Shown one piece after another: positions 23,405 to 42,375 of a DNA stretch of 43,050 nt (position 1 is the first letter of the stretch; each line of letters begins with the position of its first letter). Origin of the DNA: Bacillota bacterium. GTDB taxonomy: Bacteria; Bacillota; Dethiobacteria; Dethiobacterales; Dethiobacteraceae. The position numbers were made by a program, and so were the translations under genes. The notes beneath the pieces are model-generated. The model was given only the letters and a program-made list of their open reading frames with translations, made no database searches and was not told the origin of the DNA. The stretch lies in assembly GCA_018725565.1 (NCBI GenBank), contig QLUR01000023.1, positions 1 to 43,050 of the forward strand, given 5' to 3'.

Positions 23405-24175
23405 ATGCACCACCTTGTCTCTCTTTCTGGCGGTGTCTCCTCCGCTGTTGCCGCCGACCGTGTTATCTCCCGCTATGGCCGCTCCAACGTCACTCTCTGG
23501 TTCGCTGATACTCTTTGGGAAGACGAAGACCTCTATCGCTTTCTCGACGACTGTCTCTCCCGTTGGGGGGGCGAACTCATTACCTTCACCGACGGTCATA
23601 CTCCTCTCCAAGTAGCTGAACAACAAAAAATTATTCCCAATAACTTTCTTGCCCCCTGTACCTTCCGTCTAAAAATTGAACCGTTTACTGCTTTTCTCAA
23701 AAAACATTCCAAACCCGTCACCGTTCACCTCGGCCTGAACTGGGATGAACAACACCGTATGGCAGCTCCTAAAGCCAACTACGAAGCTATCGAAGACGTC
23801 ACCCTTGACTTCCCCCTCCTCTGGCAACCTCTCTGTTGGGATACCCGTCAGGAAGTACGCTCCTGGGGTATCCCCATTCCCCACCTCTATGAACTAGGAT
23901 TTCCCCACAATAACTGCGGCGGCCGCTGCGTCAAACAAGGCATTGGCGAATGGAATCGTCTCCGTATCCATTTCCCCGAACGCTTCGCCGAAGTCCGTGA
24001 CTGGGAACTCTCCCGCCGTGCCCTCGGCGGTAAACTCGCCAACCGCTCCATTGCCAGCCGTACTGTCGGCGATGTCAAAGGCCCTATCACTCTCCAAAAA
24101 ATTGAACTAGAAAATTCTCCCCTTGACGGCGAAACAACTCAGGGCGATATGTTCGTTTGCTTTTGTTCCTACTAA
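23405..24175 (+). CDS. PAPS reductase-like PP-loop protein
   Basis: 256 aa. N-terminal LVSLSGGVSSAVAA is the PP-loop (SGGxxS at about 8-13) that binds and activates ATP; VTLWFADTLWEDEDLYRFL follows as in the adenosine-phosphosulfate reductase superfamily. C-terminal NNCGGRCVKQG near residue 180 gives a Cys pair, and HLGLNWDEQHRM lies mid-protein. Phages often carry such proteins beside methylases. Possible roles are sulfur or nucleotide modification of DNA or tRNA; the substrate is unknown. ATG follows AAGGAA. Confidence 0.75.
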   Translation: MHHLVSLSGGVSSAVAADRVISRYGRSNVTLWFADTLWEDEDLYRFLDDCLSRWGGELITFTDGHTPLQVAEQQKIIPNNFLAPCTFRLKIEPFTAFLKKHSKPVTVHLGLNWDEQHRMAAPKANYEAIEDVTLDFPLLWQPLCWDTRQEVRSWGIPIPHLYELGFPHNNCGGRCVKQGIGEWNRLRIHFPERFAEVRDWELSRRALGGKLANRSIASRTVGDVKGPITLQKIELENSPLDGETTQGDMFVCFCSY

Positions 24176-24354: not shown

Positions 24355-25494
24355 TCAAACAGCGAATGCCGGGATACCCGGTCTTACAGCGCCTAACCCA
24401 AGAGAAGATGCCCCTTCTCTTTCGATATTTACCGAAGCGTTGAAGTCTCTGTCGTGAATGACACCGCAGCCGGTGCAGACCCAACGGCGGTCTGAGAGAG
24501 TCAACGAATGATTAACTTGTCCACAGTCAGAACAAGTCTTGCTGGAAGGAAAGAAGCGGTCTATCAGATGAACAATTTTGCCCTTCACCAAAGCAACGTA
24601 CTGAAGGATGTTGACGAAAGCGGCAAAACCCAAATCGGACACTTTGCGTCCCCATCGTCGCTGCATAGCCTTGATGTTCAGGTCTTCCAGCACAATCACG
24701 TCAAACTTGTCAGTTAGATCGTGGGCCAGCTTGAAAAACCAATCACGGCGCAAGTTGGCAATCCGTTCATGGGCTTTGGCAAGGACAAGTTTGGCTTTCT
24801 TCCGATTGTGACTGCCCTTCTGTTTTCGAGACAATTCTCGATTCAGACGACGTATCTCGTTCAGCGCAATTTTGTAGAAAAGCGGGCTTTCAACAGTTGT
24901 ACCGTCGCTCAGGGTAAGAAATGTTTTCAGCCCAAAGTCCACGCCCACGATATTACTCGGTGTGACCGGATCGGGATACATTCCCCCTGCTACTGCGAAA
25001 CACAACCAGATATGGCCCAACTCATCTCGCTTGATGGTGACTGTTTTGATTGTTCCGTCTATTTCACGGCTCTTGCTGAATTTATACGTTTGTCCCTGAA
25101 TGCGGATACGATTGCCGCCCAGACGTTTCCAGCCTGCTTGTTTCAGCGTGAAAGATTTGTACAGCTTCACTTTCTTGAAGGATGGTCGTCCGCTATGTTG
25201 CGTTGTTTTTCCTGCTTTGTATTTGAAAAATCGCTGATAGGCTGCATCGAGTCGTTCAATGATACCTTGCATAGCTTGACTGCCTACCAGTTGCCAATGC
25301 GAATACTTTTGACGATTGCGAAGTTTGGCAATATGTTTCATCAAATCGTACTTGCTGATGTATTTTCCAGTGAGCTTGTAGTACCGGCGTTGCAAAGCAA
25401 CACAGTGGTTCCAAATTAGACCAGATACATTGATAGCCTGATGCAGATGCTTATTTTTATCGTTGTCGTACAATCGGTATTTGTAGGTGATCAC
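24355..25494 (-). CDS. tnpB: TnpB, RNA-guided RuvC nuclease
   Basis: 379 aa. RuvC motifs complete: GVDFGLKTFLTL with Asp186, VIVLEDLNIKAM with Glu270, HDRDFNASVNI with Asp350. Zinc ribbon CSDCG (321/324) and CTGCG (340/343). N-terminal YKYRLYDNDKNK and bridging helix region are present. GTG start shares a base with the tnpA stop (TAGTG). Cuts DNA next to a transposon-adjacent motif using omega-RNA and so favours retention of the IS. All catalytic residues intact, so probably active. Confidence 0.92.
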   Translation of the reverse strand: MITYKYRLYDNDKNKHLHQAINVSGLIWNHCVALQRRYYKLTGKYISKYDLMKHIAKLRNRQKYSHWQLVGSQAMQGIIERLDAAYQRFFKYKAGKTTQHSGRPSFKKVKLYKSFTLKQAGWKRLGGNRIRIQGQTYKFSKSREIDGTIKTVTIKRDELGHIWLCFAVAGGMYPDPVTPSNIVGVDFGLKTFLTLSDGTTVESPLFYKIALNEIRRLNRELSRKQKGSHNRKKAKLVLAKAHERIANLRRDWFFKLAHDLTDKFDVIVLEDLNIKAMQRRWGRKVSDLGFAAFVNILQYVALVKGKIVHLIDRFFPSSKTCSDCGQVNHSLTLSDRRWVCTGCGVIHDRDFNASVNIEREGASSLGLGAVRPGIPAFAV

Positions 25495-27484: not shown

Positions 27485-28120
27485 CTATTTTGGCGTATCC
27501 GGCTCGCTATCGGCCAGCCGGTAGTCGGCGTCCACCGGCTCTGGCAGTGCATTTTGTCCGGTTTGTGGCGTTTCTTTCCAGGCAAATACTACTGTCAGTT
27601 CGCCGTGTTCTTCTCTTCGTTCCGGCGCTCTGACTCCAAGAATCAAATTTCGCTCTATCTCAATATCCTTTATGACTGATAGGTACTTAGCGTCAGGCGC
27701 TGTCTTTTTAGTGCTGGTACTGGTGCGACTGCGTCCTTCATTGTCTATCGTTTCAGTCGTTGTTACCGTTGTTTGGCTGTCAATGTAAGCGTCCAGGGCC
27801 AGAGTGCGAATCATATCTAAGCGTGCAATTTGGAGCAGGCGGGCGTCTTCGGGGTCATCGGGGGCTATGTCTTTATAACGTGCTAGACCGGTTGCTATAT
27901 CCTGCCTGACTTGTGAGACGGTGATTTGATAGCGGTCGCCTGCTCTGCCGTTGATAGCGTCTGCGATGGCTTGTGGTTTGACCAAACCAGTAGAAGCAAG
28001 CACGGCGGCAAGTGTTTGGTCTGCACGTCTGTCTGCTTTGCGTCGTTTGTAGTTGGGTTTACGCAAAACGGGATTTGCAGATTGCTGTAAATTATTAGTA
28101 AGTATTTCGTTATTATCCAT
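27485..28120 (-). CDS. terS: Terminase small subunit (putative)
   Basis: 211 aa. N-terminal basic arm (KPNYKRRKADRRADQ) and a helix-turn-helix-like part (LVKPQAIADAINGRAGDRYQ, VSQVRQDIATGLARY), then helices, then IERNLILGVRAPERREEHGELTVVFAW, a C-terminal pattern usual in small terminases. It would recognise packaging sites and recruit the large subunit, which lies 6.4 kb away beyond mobile cargo. ATG sits about seven bases after a -10, without ribosome site, suggesting a leaderless mRNA. Alternative: other DNA-binding phage protein. Confidence 0.6.
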   Translation of the reverse strand: MDNNEILTNNLQQSANPVLRKPNYKRRKADRRADQTLAAVLASTGLVKPQAIADAINGRAGDRYQITVSQVRQDIATGLARYKDIAPDDPEDARLLQIARLDMIRTLALDAYIDSQTTVTTTETIDNEGRSRTSTSTKKTAPDAKYLSVIKDIEIERNLILGVRAPERREEHGELTVVFAWKETPQTGQNALPEPVDADYRLADSEPDTPK

Positions 28121-32085: not shown

Positions 32086-32478
32086 ATGGACAAATATAAC
32101 GCAGCGGCTGACCAAGCTGTATATGCATCATTGATGCAGCAAGTGGGGGTAATGACCCCCGGCGACCTGCTGGGCTATCTCAGTCCAGAGACGTTGAACG
32201 CTATGGCCGCCGACTGGGCCGCCCGCCCGCCGCAAACGGCTGAGGAACTGGCCTACTTTGACGCCGAAGCAAAACTGGAGACAGCCATCCAGAAGGCGGC
32301 TGAGGCCGCGTCAAAGGCACTGAGCAGCCAATGGGCCAGTGACCTGAATCAGGCAAGCACGACCTTTGCTGTGGCCGCTGACGCAAAAAAGGCGGCGGAC
32401 CAAGCGAAATGGCTGATGGACGCCGCTTTCCGCCTGAGCGACGAGTATCGTTCGCAACAGGCGGAAGGTAGCAAGTAG
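32086..32478 (+). CDS. Helical Ala-rich protein (130 aa)
   Basis: MDKYNAAADQAVYASLMQQV, PGDLLGYLSPETLNAMAADW, then AIQKAAEAASKALSSQWASDL. Ribosome site AAGAAGGGG. The last codons EGSK and the TAG stop come from the heptanucleotide repeat that follows. Not as low-complexity as the other Ala-rich genes. Function unknown. Confidence 0.6.
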   Translation: MDKYNAAADQAVYASLMQQVGVMTPGDLLGYLSPETLNAMAADWAARPPQTAEELAYFDAEAKLETAIQKAAEAASKALSSQWASDLNQASTTFAVAADAKKAADQAKWLMDAAFRLSDEYRSQQAEGSK

Positions 32479-32517
32479 CAAGTAGCAAGTAGCAAGTATT
32501 GCAACCTGCTACCTTCC
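32464..32517 (+). repeat. Heptanucleotide repeat array H1
   Basis: GGAAGGTAGCA followed by repeated AGTAGCA units, then an inverted segment TTGCAACCTGCTACCTTCC. The ends pair perfectly (GGAAGGTAGCA with TGCTACCTTCC), making a hairpin after the gene. Confidence 0.85.
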
Positions 32518-32880: not shown

Positions 32881-33177
32881 ATGAATACCATGACCAAAAC
32901 CGCCGCCGCCGAAGCTGCCACCAAAGCTGCTTACGTTGCGGCCTACGACGCCTACGTTACTGCCGTCAGTGACGGGGTCGATGCTGCTGCTGATGCCGCA
33001 TACGTTGCGGCATACGCGGCATACGCGGCATACGCGGCCTATGCCGACTACGTTGACATCGATGCCGATGCGGCCTACATTGCTACTTCTGCTGTCCGTG
33101 CCGCTCTCGATGCCGACATTGCTGCCGATGCGGCCTACATTGCTGCCGAGACGGCCTACGCTGTCGCCGAAGCGTAA
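32881..33177 (+). CDS. Alanine/tyrosine-rich repeat protein
   Basis: 98 aa. MNTMTKTAAAEAATKAAYVA, then AAYVAAYAAYAAYAAYADYV and DADAAYIATSAVRAAL. AAYAAYAAY units repeat nearly exactly at the DNA level (GCATACGCG). N-terminus resembles the minus-strand operon at 26.4-27.2 kb (TKAAA), so one family with at least four members here. Stop TAA is four codons short of a hammerhead ribozyme. Confidence 0.6.
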   Translation: MNTMTKTAAAEAATKAAYVAAYDAYVTAVSDGVDAAADAAYVAAYAAYAAYAAYADYVDIDADAAYIATSAVRAALDADIAADAAYIAAETAYAVAEA

Positions 33178-33236
33178 GCTCGAAACTAGACTCTTACAAG
33201 TCTAGTCGCTAGCTACCTGGCTAGTCTGACGAGAGC
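33178..33236 (+). ncRNA. Hammerhead ribozyme 1 (type II)
   Basis: Starts right after the TAA stop. Stem II: GCTC 33178-33181 with GAGC 33233-33236. Core GAAA 33182-33185. Stem III: CTAGAC 33186-33191 with GTCTAG 33200-33205. Cleavage triplet GTC, predicted cut after C33207. Stem I: GCTAGC 33208-33213 with GCTAGT 33220-33225, loop TACCTG. Core CTGACGA 33226-33232. Stems I and III are closed by loops and stem II is open, so it is the type II permutation. Stem II has only four pairs. Confidence 0.8.
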
Positions 33237-33252
33237 AAATAAGGAGATTGAA

Positions 33253-33441
33253 ATGAAAGATCGGACAACGTACAAGGCGCTAATGAAAAAAATCAACAAC
33301 GGATACGTCGAGGTCGACGCTTGGGAAGACACGATCACAAACAATGAGTGTCATGCCATCGTCAGACTCTACAAGTCCAACGGAACAAGCCGAAGAATTC
33401 GGATTCTCGTCATCAAGTTACCTGCCGATTTTGCGAACTAA
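33253..33441 (+). CDS. Unknown 62-aa protein behind ribozyme 1
   Basis: MKDRTTYKALMKKINNGYVE, then VRLYKSNGTSRRIRILVIK. Basic, mixed fold. AAGGAG lies 5-10 bases upstream and directly follows the ribozyme. Stop TAA precedes ribozyme 2. Confidence 0.6.
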   Translation: MKDRTTYKALMKKINNGYVEVDAWEDTITNNECHAIVRLYKSNGTSRRIRILVIKLPADFAN

Positions 33442-33445
33442 CCGA

Positions 33446-33504
33446 GCTCGAAACTAGACTCAATTGAGTTTAGTTGCTAGCTAACTGGCTAGCCTGATGA
33501 GAGC
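33446..33504 (+). ncRNA. Hammerhead ribozyme 2 (type II)
   Basis: Stem II: GCTC 33446-33449 with GAGC 33501-33504. Core GAAA 33450-33453. Stem III: CTAGACTC 33454-33461, loop AATT, GAGTTTAG 33466-33473. Cleavage triplet GTT, cut after T33475. Stem I: GCTAGC 33476-33481, loop TAACTG, GCTAGC 33488-33493. Core CTGATGA 33494-33500. Compared with ribozyme 1, stem III is two pairs longer and the first stem I pair changes from G-U to G-C, i.e. pairing is kept while sequence changes. Confidence 0.8.
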
Positions 33505-33517
33505 AAAGGAGATGGAG

Positions 33518-33757
33518 ATGGAGATGAGCAAGCAACACGACCGAATTACAGAGAAATTGGAATCGATGGGCATGGCATGGGCTGTCTGCAGCTACAAATA
33601 CTGCGACGCTAACGACCCGATGGAGGATCAGATCGCCCATCGGAAGACCTACCACATCCATCCCAATGCCCGCTACCCCTATCAAAACGACATCTTTCGT
33701 TTTGATAGTTTGACGGAAATAGCAAAGTGGCTAAATTCCCCAGTAGAGGAATGGTAA
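33518..33757 (+). CDS. Unknown 79-aa protein behind ribozyme 2
   Basis: Start taken at the ATG 33518 (AAGGAG six bases upstream); ATGs at 33512 and 33524 are in the same frame. KQHDRITEKLESMGMAWAVC, DANDPMEDQIAHRKTYHIHP, FRFDSLTEIAKWLNSPVEEW. No family recognised. A strong CCCCGGCCA/TGGCCGGGG hairpin follows. Confidence 0.6.
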   Translation: MEMSKQHDRITEKLESMGMAWAVCSYKYCDANDPMEDQIAHRKTYHIHPNARYPYQNDIFRFDSLTEIAKWLNSPVEEW

Positions 33758-34513: not shown

Positions 34514-34710
34514 GGTAGCAAGTGGAAGGTTGCAGGTTGCAAGTCGCAGGTTGCAGGTTGCAGGTTGCAGGTTGCAGGTTGCAGGTTGCAGGTTGCAGGT
34601 TGCAGGTAGCAGGTAGCAGGTAGCAGGTAGCAAGTAGCAGGTAGCAGGTAGCAGGTAGCAGGTAGCAGGTAGCAGGTAGCAGGTAGCAGGTAGCAGGTAG
34701 CAGGTAGCAG
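34514..34710 (+). repeat. Heptanucleotide repeat array H2
   Basis: About 27 units of 7 bp, first of type GGTTGCA and then of type GGTAGCA, between the Ala-rich and RHH genes. No inverted tail. The start cuts a CCCCGGCCATCCCCTGG hairpin half. The last unit runs into the ribosome site (AGAAGGAAGG) of the next gene. Confidence 0.92.
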
Positions 34711-35607: not shown

Positions 35608-36570
35608 ATGTACAAATTCACGTTAGGGAATCTTCCTGGAAATCTCGAAATTGTCGGAGAAGTGGACACGGTGAAAGAGGTGTTCCAGCAGGTACACTTC
35701 TGGCAAGGACTTCCATCCTACTGTCCGATTGATGGGACAGCCACAGTGCTGACGTTCAAAGAGCCAGACGACTTTCAGTATTACGGACTGTGCAACACTG
35801 GCCCAGTGTTGTTTGAATGGAAATTGGGCCAACACAAAACGAAGGGCACACTTTTTCCAAAGGGGCAATGGACGCACTACGACGGTCAGTCGGAAATTGT
35901 CGTTTGGGAAAATGGTCGCTTCACGCCTGTTGGCGTGAAGTTTCGGCCAGGTGAAATGATGTCACCCGTCACCGATGCATCCCATGCCCAAACGCTCCCT
36001 TCTGGTTCGTGTCCAGAGTGTCGTGCGCCGGAAGAAAGGTCACATGCCACCAATTGTTCTAAGCATGTCAAACTTATCAAAAGTTTAGCTGATGTTGACC
36101 CGTTGGATTTCAACGCCAACGCCAATACTGCTATTGTCGAGGAGTTTGCTGCTATTCCTGCTCAAATAGCCGGAATGGTCAATGGGCAGCCGGTCGGTAA
36201 GGCAAAGCAACATGCAACCGCCGTAACGCCTGCGTTCCTGGGATTTGCGGAAGAGGTTGTCGAATGGGCAAAGACGACACACCGCAGCGGCAACGAAGCG
36301 TGCAGCGAAGCGCAGTACGGGTATCTTGTCAGCGTGATTAACAAAATTACCGGCGATAAGGAGTCCCACACGGCTGTCCTGTCTGCGTTGACTGGACGAC
36401 TGACAACTCACGAGAACCGGGTTGACAGAAAACTGGCTGGTGAACTTCTGGACTACCTGCCAGAGACAAAGAGCGTCAAGAACGATGACGGCACAAAGTC
36501 GCAAGTCAAGAACGATAAGTATCGCCCGACTTATGTGGCGGTCGTCAAGTGGGTAGCAGGTAGCAGGTAG
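35608..36570 (+). CDS. Unknown 320-aa protein with zinc knuckle
   Basis: N-terminal beta domain (about 1-115, ATVLTFKEPDDFQYYGLCNT, FPKGQWTHYDG), a zinc-knuckle SCPECRAPEE ... NCSKH (134-152), and a helical C-terminal part (QYGYLVSVINKITGDKESHTAV, quoted partly: YGYLVSVINKITGD; DRKLAGELLDYL). The latter resembles a module seen in phage recombination or annealing helpers. Final residues VAGSR and the TAG stop come from array H3, so the original C-terminus may be lost. Function uncertain. Confidence 0.6.
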   Translation: MYKFTLGNLPGNLEIVGEVDTVKEVFQQVHFWQGLPSYCPIDGTATVLTFKEPDDFQYYGLCNTGPVLFEWKLGQHKTKGTLFPKGQWTHYDGQSEIVVWENGRFTPVGVKFRPGEMMSPVTDASHAQTLPSGSCPECRAPEERSHATNCSKHVKLIKSLADVDPLDFNANANTAIVEEFAAIPAQIAGMVNGQPVGKAKQHATAVTPAFLGFAEEVVEWAKTTHRSGNEACSEAQYGYLVSVINKITGDKESHTAVLSALTGRLTTHENRVDRKLAGELLDYLPETKSVKNDDGTKSQVKNDKYRPTYVAVVKWVAGSR

Positions 36571-36750
36571 CAGGTAGCAGGTAGCGGGTAGCGGGTAGCG
36601 GGTAGCGGGTAGCAGGTAGCAGGTAGCAGGTGGCAGGTAGCAGGTGGCAGGTAGCAGGTGGCAGGTAGCAGGTGGCAGGTGGCAGGTAGCAGGTGGCAGG
36701 TGGCAGGTGGCAATACTTACTACTTGCAACCTTCCACCTGCTACCTTTTT
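36551..36750 (+). repeat. Heptanucleotide repeat array H3 with terminator end
   Basis: GGTAGCA, GGTAGCG and GGTGGCA units, followed by an inverted segment TACTTGCAACCTTCCACCTGCTACC and seven T. The inverted end pairs with the array, forming a terminator-like hairpin after the 320-aa gene. Confidence 0.9.
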
Positions 36751-41865: not shown

Positions 41866-42297
41866 TTGGAATTATCAATCATTGCAGAGATAGCTCAGTA
41901 TCACAATCGAGTGGGGTCGTGGGCGGTAGTAGCTAAGTTGATGCGGAAGTCTCCTGCTTATGCTATGCGCGTCGTGCGCGGCGATTTGCATTTGTCGGAG
42001 GAGGCTGCCGATGCTTGGATACGCAACTATCGCAATCAGTATGCCGGAAAAGTGCTTATTCCAATATGCCCTACTTGTGGCGATGCTCACGTTGTCGGAG
42101 ATTGCCACGGCAAGGACGGTCACCCTGTCATTCTGGCGGCCAATGAAGAAGTGCGTCTTACTTCCCTTCATCCGGCCCGTCAGCGTCCGCATCGAGTTCG
42201 TCGAGAGATGACAGCGGATCAAGCGGCTGTTTGGGATAATTTGACAAAGGTACAAAAAAATACAATTTTGGGGGTTCGGATGGCAGGTAGCAAGTAG
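41866..42297 (+). CDS. HTH-like protein with zinc motif (143 aa)
   Basis: TTG at 41866 behind GGGGGGAG is preferred; ATG 41827 would add 13 residues but lacks a site. IIAEIAQYHNRVGSWAVVAK, LMRKSPAYAMRVVRGDLHLS looks like an HTH; IPICPTCGDAHVVGDCHGK holds Cys and His pairs. The last residues MAGSK and stop derive from array H4. Confidence 0.55.
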   Translation: MELSIIAEIAQYHNRVGSWAVVAKLMRKSPAYAMRVVRGDLHLSEEAADAWIRNYRNQYAGKVLIPICPTCGDAHVVGDCHGKDGHPVILAANEEVRLTSLHPARQRPHRVRREMTADQAAVWDNLTKVQKNTILGVRMAGSK

Positions 42298-42375
42298 CAG
42301 GTTGCAGGTAGCAAGTAGCAGGTTGCAGGTAGCGACACCTGCATACTTGCTACTTGCTACTTGCTACTTGCTACT
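42281..42375. repeat. Heptanucleotide array H4 with inverted half
   Basis: GGCAGGTAGCAAGTAGCAGGTTGCA units then TACTTGCTACTTGCTACTTGC: left and right arms are complementary over about 40 bases. It lies between convergent genes and probably ends transcription from both sides. Confidence 0.85.

What the first reader, a model, noticed from the sequence alone, without database searches (positions are those of the whole stretch)
33178..33504. Two type II hammerhead ribozymes in front of small phage genes
Both copies have every core element (CTGANGA, GAAA, UH cleavage nucleotide) and three stems; stem I and III are closed by loops and stem II is open. Stem III sequence and length differ while pairing is kept, and a G-U pair in one is G-C in the other. 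Each lies between a stop codon and the next ribosome binding site. They would cut the early mRNA upstream of the site, separating genes of the operon and leaving defined 5' ends.
Basis: partly seen in the sequence, partly recalled or inferred. Interest (0 to 1): 0.92.

Follow-up and report, generated by a model that had tools for sequence, protein, structure and literature searches.

The report
Paired self-cutting RNAs between phage genes
Two small self-cutting RNA motifs (type II hammerhead ribozymes) sit between tiny genes of an uncultured phage, each starting at or just after the previous gene's stop codon, so the phage's long message probably chops itself into single-gene pieces; this kind of arrangement is known from other phages, but these two copies are missed by the standard RNA-family library.

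Summary
Two complete type II hammerhead ribozymes lie at 33178-33236 and 33446-33504 (+). Predicted cuts are 33207|33208 and 33475|33476. Rfam finds neither, even at E<=10. However, a covariance model built only from 35 hammerheads of other phages finds exactly these two in the window (E about 2e-10 and 7e-10).

About 300 type II hammerheads in other phage contigs, and arrays in cultured Streptomyces phages, give the context. They lie on one strand per locus, between small genes, typically with the upstream stop codon -1 to +4 nt from stem II and a ribosome-binding site and start about 25 nt downstream. The window pair fits.

The arrangement was described in 2011 (Perreault et al.), so this is a new member of a known kind. 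The pair belongs to a compact, pseudoknot-free sub-architecture (4-bp stem II, 6-bp stem I capped by U-N3/4-G, an A just 5' of stem II in 104 of 104 cases) that Rfam's model mostly misses. Copy 2 has the rare cleavage nucleotide U and may be slow.

Best explanation: co-transcriptional self-cleavage splits a polycistronic phage mRNA, releasing a 268-nt one-gene mRNA with a hairpin at each end. Cleavage, "early" timing and role were not tested.

The parts
33178..33236 (+). Type II hammerhead ribozyme, copy 1
   Evidence: Core and stems; model R1 37.6 bits, E=1.8e-10; centroid fold
33207..33208 (+). Predicted cleavage site of copy 1 (GUC, between C33207 and G33208)
   Evidence: Position H17 from the descriptor; cleavage not tested
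33446..33504 (+). Type II hammerhead ribozyme, copy 2
   Evidence: Core and stems; model R1 36.0 bits, E=6.5e-10; centroid fold z=-4.76
33475..33476 (+). Predicted cleavage site of copy 2 (GUU, between U33475 and G33476); U17 is rare in the family
   Evidence: cleavage not tested
33177..33177 (+). A immediately 5' of stem II of copy 1; also the last base of the upstream stop codon
   Evidence: A at this place in 104/104 class-B members
33445..33445 (+). A immediately 5' of stem II of copy 2
32881..33177 (+). Upstream ORF, 98 aa, Ala/Tyr-rich; stop TAA touches copy 1
   Evidence: no family match
33241..33246 (+). Ribosome-binding site AAGGAG of the middle gene
   Evidence: Read directly from the sequence
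33253..33441 (+). ORF of 62 aa between the two ribozymes; would become a separate 268-nt mRNA (33208-33475)
   Evidence: only a very weak PHROG match, E=0.085
33514..33517 (+). Ribosome-binding site GGAG of the downstream gene
   Evidence: Read directly from the sequence
33524..33757 (+). Downstream ORF, 77 aa; start supported by homologues beginning MSKQHDRI
   Evidence: Four viral homologues at 59% identity, without a ribozyme upstream

Best explanation
Two cis-acting type II hammerhead ribozymes punctuate a polycistronic phage transcript. As the RNA is made, each folds (stems III and I as hairpins, stem II closing the junction) and cuts once, 3' of C33207 and U33475. The upstream message then ends in the stem III hairpin with a 2',3'-cyclic phosphate, about 30 nt past its stop codon. 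The downstream message begins with 5'-OH and the stem I hairpin, just ahead of its ribosome-binding site. The 62-aa gene becomes a separate 268-nt mRNA with a hairpin at each end, so stability and translation of each small gene can be set separately. Shown: motif, fold prediction, covariation in relatives, placement. Inferred: cleavage, co-transcription, and the purpose of the cut.
For: Complete core and stems in both copies, with none as strong in 150 shuffles. Copy-to-copy differences keep pairing or fall in loops, N7 and H17. A model without window sequences finds only these two. In related phage hammerheads 99.3% of pair cells are paired and 13 of 17 pairs change on both sides (sequences were selected by pairing, so part is by construction). 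Matches to core plus 3 bp of stem II in viral contigs have stems I and III in 265 of 295 cases, against 6 of 2980 with shuffled interiors. Upstream stop within 30 nt in 79-92% against 18% of random places; SD plus start within 80 nt in 73-77% against 21%. No locus has them on both strands and 47 loci carry two or more. Arrays from Clostridium, Azorhizobium and Agrobacterium cleaved in vitro, and the Agrobacterium one in E. coli (PMC3088659).
Against: No cleavage data for this pair. Copy 2 has U17, rare in the family, so it may cut slowly. Loop I is one base longer than usual and closed by C-G where 97 of 104 class-B members have G-C. No loop I-tail pseudoknot (3 bp in copy 1, overlapping the ribosome-binding site; 0 in copy 2). 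Homologues of the downstream gene do without a ribozyme. No closely related phage with the same pair was found.
Confidence: 0.8

Rival explanations
1. The ribozymes are real but at least copy 2 is weak or decayed, so the message is cut only at copy 1 or only in part; the pair is a remnant of a duplicated element rather than a working double cutter.
For: Copy 2 has the rare U17 (1 of 104 class B; 8 of 304 over all classes). The copies look like a duplicate pair with unrelated flanks.
Against: All core bases and all stems are kept in copy 2; its differences from copy 1 keep pairing; its predicted fold is the more stable of the two. U17 is also found in seven other phage hammerheads.
Confidence: 0.2
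2. The cut serves translation control more than mRNA separation: stem II and the core lie between stop codon and ribosome-binding site, so ribosomes leaving the upstream gene or landing on the downstream one decide whether the ribozyme can fold, and the cut switches off translational coupling of the two genes.
For: Stop codons sit -1 to +4 nt from stem II in most of the survey and the upstream slack is smaller than the downstream slack (50 of 65 class B, 75 of 90 class A). The A needed 5' of stem II lies inside the stop codon in 32 of 85 class-B cases with a near stop.
Against: Compact phage genomes leave little room anyway; no expression data; the downstream distance is variable.
Confidence: 0.2
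3. The two ribozymes release and then circularise the 268-nt RNA: the excised piece carries the 3' half of copy 1 and the 5' half of copy 2, which could rebuild a hybrid hammerhead (identical GCTC/GAGC stem II) and ligate, as in viroid-like RNA circles.
For: Stem II is identical in both copies. Neighbouring copies in other arrays could form a hybrid stem II in 69 of 92 cases against 59% for random pairs, a small excess that relatedness within a phage could explain.
Against: Perreault et al. looked for spliced or circular products of such arrays and detected none (PMC3088659). Hybrid pairing is not enforced in a quarter of arrays.
Confidence: 0.06
4. Not ribozymes at all: chance hairpins or terminator-like structures between genes.
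For: Rfam gives no hit; no cleavage data.
Against: Two complete cores in the right permutation, E about 1e-10 with an independent model, no comparable shuffle hit; no T-run follows either stem and no terminator-like site is reported there.
Confidence: 0.03

Closest known systems
Type II hammerhead ribozymes in bacteria and prophages (Perreault et al. 2011, PMC3088659)
   Same: Core, circular permutation (stems I and III capped, stem II open), several copies close together flanking single small genes of varying identity in phage genomes
   Different: Most of theirs have a loop I-3' tail pseudoknot of 4 or more bp; the window pair does not
Rfam RF02276 Hammerhead_II
   Same: Same permutation and core
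   Different: The window copies give no reportable score; the model searches hits in 9 loci rich in pseudoknotted forms but only 3 in 14 loci carrying the pseudoknot-free class B
Hammerhead arrays of cultured Streptomyces phages Janus, Haizum and Thestral (Arquatrovirinae), found here
   Same: Arrays between small genes on one strand, RF02276 hits over the cut-off
   Different: Mostly 3-bp stem II and a longer stem-loop I than the window pair
Class-B phage hammerheads collected here, e.g. L006, L062, L204
   Same: 4-bp stem II, 6-bp stem I plus U-G, short loop, A 5' of stem II; L006 has the same GCTC/GAGC stem II and two copies 325 nt apart
   Different: The window has a C-G pair below the U-G and a 4-nt inner loop; copy 2 has U17

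Membership tests
Type II hammerhead ribozyme | Core CUGANGA, GAA, A15.1-U16.1 pair, and H (not G) at position 17 | tested here: met
   Both copies complete
Type II hammerhead ribozyme | Stems I and III closed by loops, stem II open | tested here: met
   Stems of 7, 8-9 and 4 bp in the right permutation; centroid fold agrees
Type II hammerhead ribozyme | Similar in sequence and structure to phage type II hammerheads from elsewhere | tested here: met
   E=1.8e-10 and 6.5e-10 with model R1 built without window sequences; E-values are rough
Type II hammerhead ribozyme | Self-cleavage at H17 giving 5'-OH and 2',3'-cyclic phosphate | not testable with these tools
   Needs in vitro transcription or 5'-OH RNA sequencing
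Rfam RF02276 Hammerhead_II | Score at or above the gathering score of 37 bits | tested here: not met
   No hit at gathering or at E<=10 on the region
Pseudoknotted type II hammerheads (Perreault consensus) | 4 or more bp between loop I and the tail 3' of stem II | tested here: not met
   3 bp in copy 1, 0 in copy 2
Class B (pseudoknot-free compact type II, defined here) | 4-bp stem II, 6-bp stem I capped by U-N3/4-G, A 5' of stem II | tested here: met
   Both copies; all 104 members have the A
Class B (pseudoknot-free compact type II, defined here) | Majority features: G-C pair below the U-G of loop I, 3-nt inner loop | tested here: not met
   Window has C-G and 4 nt; 97/104 members have G-C and 100/107, counted before redundancy removal, the 17-nt stem-loop I. 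Not treated as defining

The most novel reading that the evidence does not exclude
The window pair exposes a distinct, so far uncatalogued sub-architecture of type II hammerheads widespread in phages. In place of the pseudoknot, an invariant A 5' of stem II contacts a U-N3/4-G loop on stem I. Because that A and stem II abut or overlap the upstream stop codon, a terminating ribosome would cover stem II and the GAA strand, so cleavage waits until ribosomes clear: a built-in coupling of translation termination to mRNA cutting.
Probability: 0.25. Interest if true: 0.65.

Novelty: new member of a known kind. Interest (0 to 1): 0.42.

Why it matters
Hammerhead ribozymes in phages have been known since about 2011, yet their biological role remains open (PMC3088659, PMC6155905). 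These two copies are invisible to the standard Rfam scan, so annotation undercounts such elements. The survey made here gives a compact definition (class B), a sharp placement rule (stop codon at the ribozyme's edge), and named cultured Streptomyces phages with arrays of type II hammerheads, in which the role of self-cutting mRNAs can be tested directly.

Tried and rejected
Rfam at gathering and permissive thresholds: no hit, explained by model coverage. DNA similarity to phages and plasmids: nothing meaningful over the pair. Relatives of neighbouring proteins: four homologues of the downstream gene without a ribozyme, none of the 62-aa gene, nine of an upstream gene with no hammerhead found nearby. 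Same phylum: a pattern covering stem II of the form GNTC found nothing in 397 other genomes, so the element goes with the phage as far as that pattern can tell. The genome search with model R1 missed even the window's own copies, so those empty answers were discarded. A pseudoknot with the ribosome-binding site (CCU/AGG in copy 1) was rejected because copy 2 lacks it. Circularisation was considered and rated low. A common target gene type was looked for: 109 downstream proteins scatter over many families, at most 3 per family.

Full report
WHAT IS THERE. The sequence at 33178-33236 and 33446-33504 on the + strand reads, 5' to 3': stem II strand GCTC, GAA, stem III hairpin, cleavage nucleotide, stem I hairpin, CTGANGA, stem II strand GAGC. 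This is the full hammerhead core in the type II permutation. A descriptor demanding the core and three stems finds only these two places on either strand of the window. In 150 dinucleotide-preserving shuffles it finds one hit in all, and none with stems as long. RNAfold's centroid structure is the hammerhead fold for both; copy 1 alone is not unusually stable (z=-1.75), copy 2 is (z=-4.76). The copies agree at 49 of 59 positions and their flanks do not resemble each other. The differences fall in loop III and the tip of stem III, loop I, position N7, the cleavage nucleotide, one G-U/G-C exchange in stem I and one in stem III.

RFAM SAYS NO, AND WHY THAT IS NOT DECISIVE. Rfam 15 gives no hit at gathering and no hammerhead hit up to E=10 on the region. 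A pattern of the same stem II and core in IMG/VR found real relatives; the best of them, two copies in L006, score 36.3 and 33.5 bits against RF02276, just under the cut-off of 37. They fall into a form with a loop I-3' tail pseudoknot and mostly 3-bp stem II (class A, 137), a compact form with 4-bp stem II and a 6-bp stem I capped by U-N3/4-G, mostly without pseudoknot (class B, 104, the window pair included), and 63 others. RF02276 called 34 hits in nine loci rich in class A but only three in fourteen class-B loci. The classes are defined by my own rules, and the counts are not a census.

INDEPENDENT TEST. Thirty-five class-B sequences, none from the window, were aligned and made into a covariance model. 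In the window it finds 33178-33236 (37.6 bits, E=1.8e-10) and 33446-33504 (36.0 bits, E=6.5e-10) and nothing else up to E=10. Calibration is short, so E-values are rough. In the alignment 99.3% of cells are paired and 13 of 17 pairs change on both sides; shuffles give 67% paired. Because sequences were chosen for having stems, part of this is by construction. The cleaner figure is: in viral contigs 265 of 295 matches to the core plus a 3-bp stem II also have stems I and III, against 6 of 2980 after shuffling the interior; for the GCTC pattern in cellular genomes it is 1 of 14.

ANATOMY SPECIFIC TO THE WINDOW PAIR. The base 5' of the 4-bp stem II is A in all 104 class-B members, both window copies included, although the search patterns did not fix it. 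I infer a tertiary contact between this A and loop I, in the spirit of the reverse-Hoogsteen contacts of other hammerheads (PMC6155905); this was not tested. The window departs from the majority in having C-G instead of G-C below the U-G (97 of 104 have G-C) and one extra loop base. Copy 2 has U at the cleavage position, the only case among 104 class-B members (96 C, 7 A). GUU is a permitted NUH site (PMC3138052) but, from general knowledge, a slower one, so copy 2 may be weak.

PLACEMENT. Copy 1 begins at the base after stop TAA 33175-33177; copy 2 begins 4 nt after TAA 33439-33441. In the survey a stop codon of an upstream ORF lies within 30 nt of stem II in 92% (A), 85% (B) and 79% (others), against 18% at random places, with medians of 1-2 nt. 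A ribosome-binding site with start follows within 80 nt in 73-77% against 21%, median 25-26 nt. The upstream slack is smaller than the downstream slack in 50 of 65 class-B and 75 of 90 class-A cases. No locus has hammerheads on both strands, 47 have two or more on one strand, and the gap between neighbours has a median of 458 nt. ORFs were called mechanically, so these are estimates. Downstream proteins are small (median 95 aa) and belong to many families.

SURROUNDINGS. The window is one whole 43,050-base contig (C29) of a 2.67 Mb genome assembly. It carries terminase, portal, head protease and major head protein on the - strand and small unknown genes, methyltransferases and an FtsK-like gene on the + strand, so it is a phage or prophage; no terminal repeat was found. 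Its terminase is at most about 30% identical to phages on record. Four viral contigs encode a homologue of the gene after copy 2 (59% identity) with no ribozyme but a TTGACA-17-TATAAT sequence upstream: the gene can live with its own promoter instead. A related pattern was found in no other genome of the phylum sample. Whether this is an early operon is not shown; promoter-like matches in the region are about twice the shuffled mean and prove nothing.

HOW IT MOST LIKELY WORKS. Co-transcriptional cleavage at both sites would release 33208-33475, a 268-nt mRNA for the 62-aa protein. The type II permutation has a consequence that follows from geometry: each cut leaves a hairpin at both new ends, stem III at the 3' end upstream and stem I at the 5' end downstream. 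Such ends, with 5'-OH and cyclic phosphate, are expected to slow exonucleases and 5'-monophosphate-dependent decay (general knowledge, not tested here). A ribosome standing on the stop codon should cover stem II and the GAA strand of copy 1, so folding may have to wait for it to leave; this coupling is a hypothesis.

KNOWN AND NEW. Perreault et al. 2011 reported type II hammerheads, their tight clusters flanking single genes in prophages, cleavage of three arrays in vitro and of one in E. [quoted passage not shown] They also note that many hammerheads lack pseudoknots. The window pair is therefore a new member of a known kind. I found no text on the stop-codon rule or on class B, but supplements could not be read and the library is partial. 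Cultured Streptomyces phages Janus, Haizum and Thestral carry arrays that reach the Rfam cut-off, which offers a laboratory system.

Noticed in passing
class-B loci such as L118, L122, L129, L144, L058, L097, L064, L105: After stem II many class-B hammerheads carry GTCAG or ATCAG, complementary to the catalytic CTGAC or CTGAT; in 22 of 24 NTCAG tails the base matches N7 (permutation mean 9.3, maximum 18 in 2000). The 3' product could fold CUGANGAnnnnNUCAG and lock the core away, for example to prevent re-ligation. Several cases look like one lineage; the window copies lack it.
   Followed up: partly
L291 1483-4361, L292 1567-3669, L293 1167-4699, L294 289-2562: Streptomyces phages Janus, Haizum and Thestral and Dulem virus 39 carry 2 to 6 Rfam-positive type II hammerheads each in 4-5 kb; the features printed with the records are all CDS, none a ribozyme.
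   Followed up: partly
window 34514-34710, 36552-36712, 32468-32498, 42283-42375: Tandem arrays of a 7-base unit (GGTAGCA and similar, up to 28 copies) on the small-gene side of the phage contig; function unknown.
   Followed up: no
window 32881-33177: Small gene encoding an Ala/Tyr-rich repeat protein (AAYVAAYAAYAAY...), with 9- and 21-base DNA repeats inside.
   Followed up: no
window 27485-28120 (-): Predicted 211-aa protein with a weak match (E=2.6e-5) to a PHROG labelled RNase E; no Pfam match.
   Followed up: no
window 24355-25494 (-): Transposase gene (PHROG 506, E=6e-104) within the phage contig.
   Followed up: no
window 23405-24175 (+): Phosphoadenosine phosphosulfate reductase-like gene (PHROG 424), an auxiliary metabolic gene candidate.
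   Followed up: no
L006 2450-2920 against Rfam RF02276: In the printed alignment both L006 copies carry a mismatch mark in the model's two-pair stem II and a gap inside GA-GAGC; the model's register may not suit members with a 4-bp stem II, one possible reason for their low scores.
   Followed up: no
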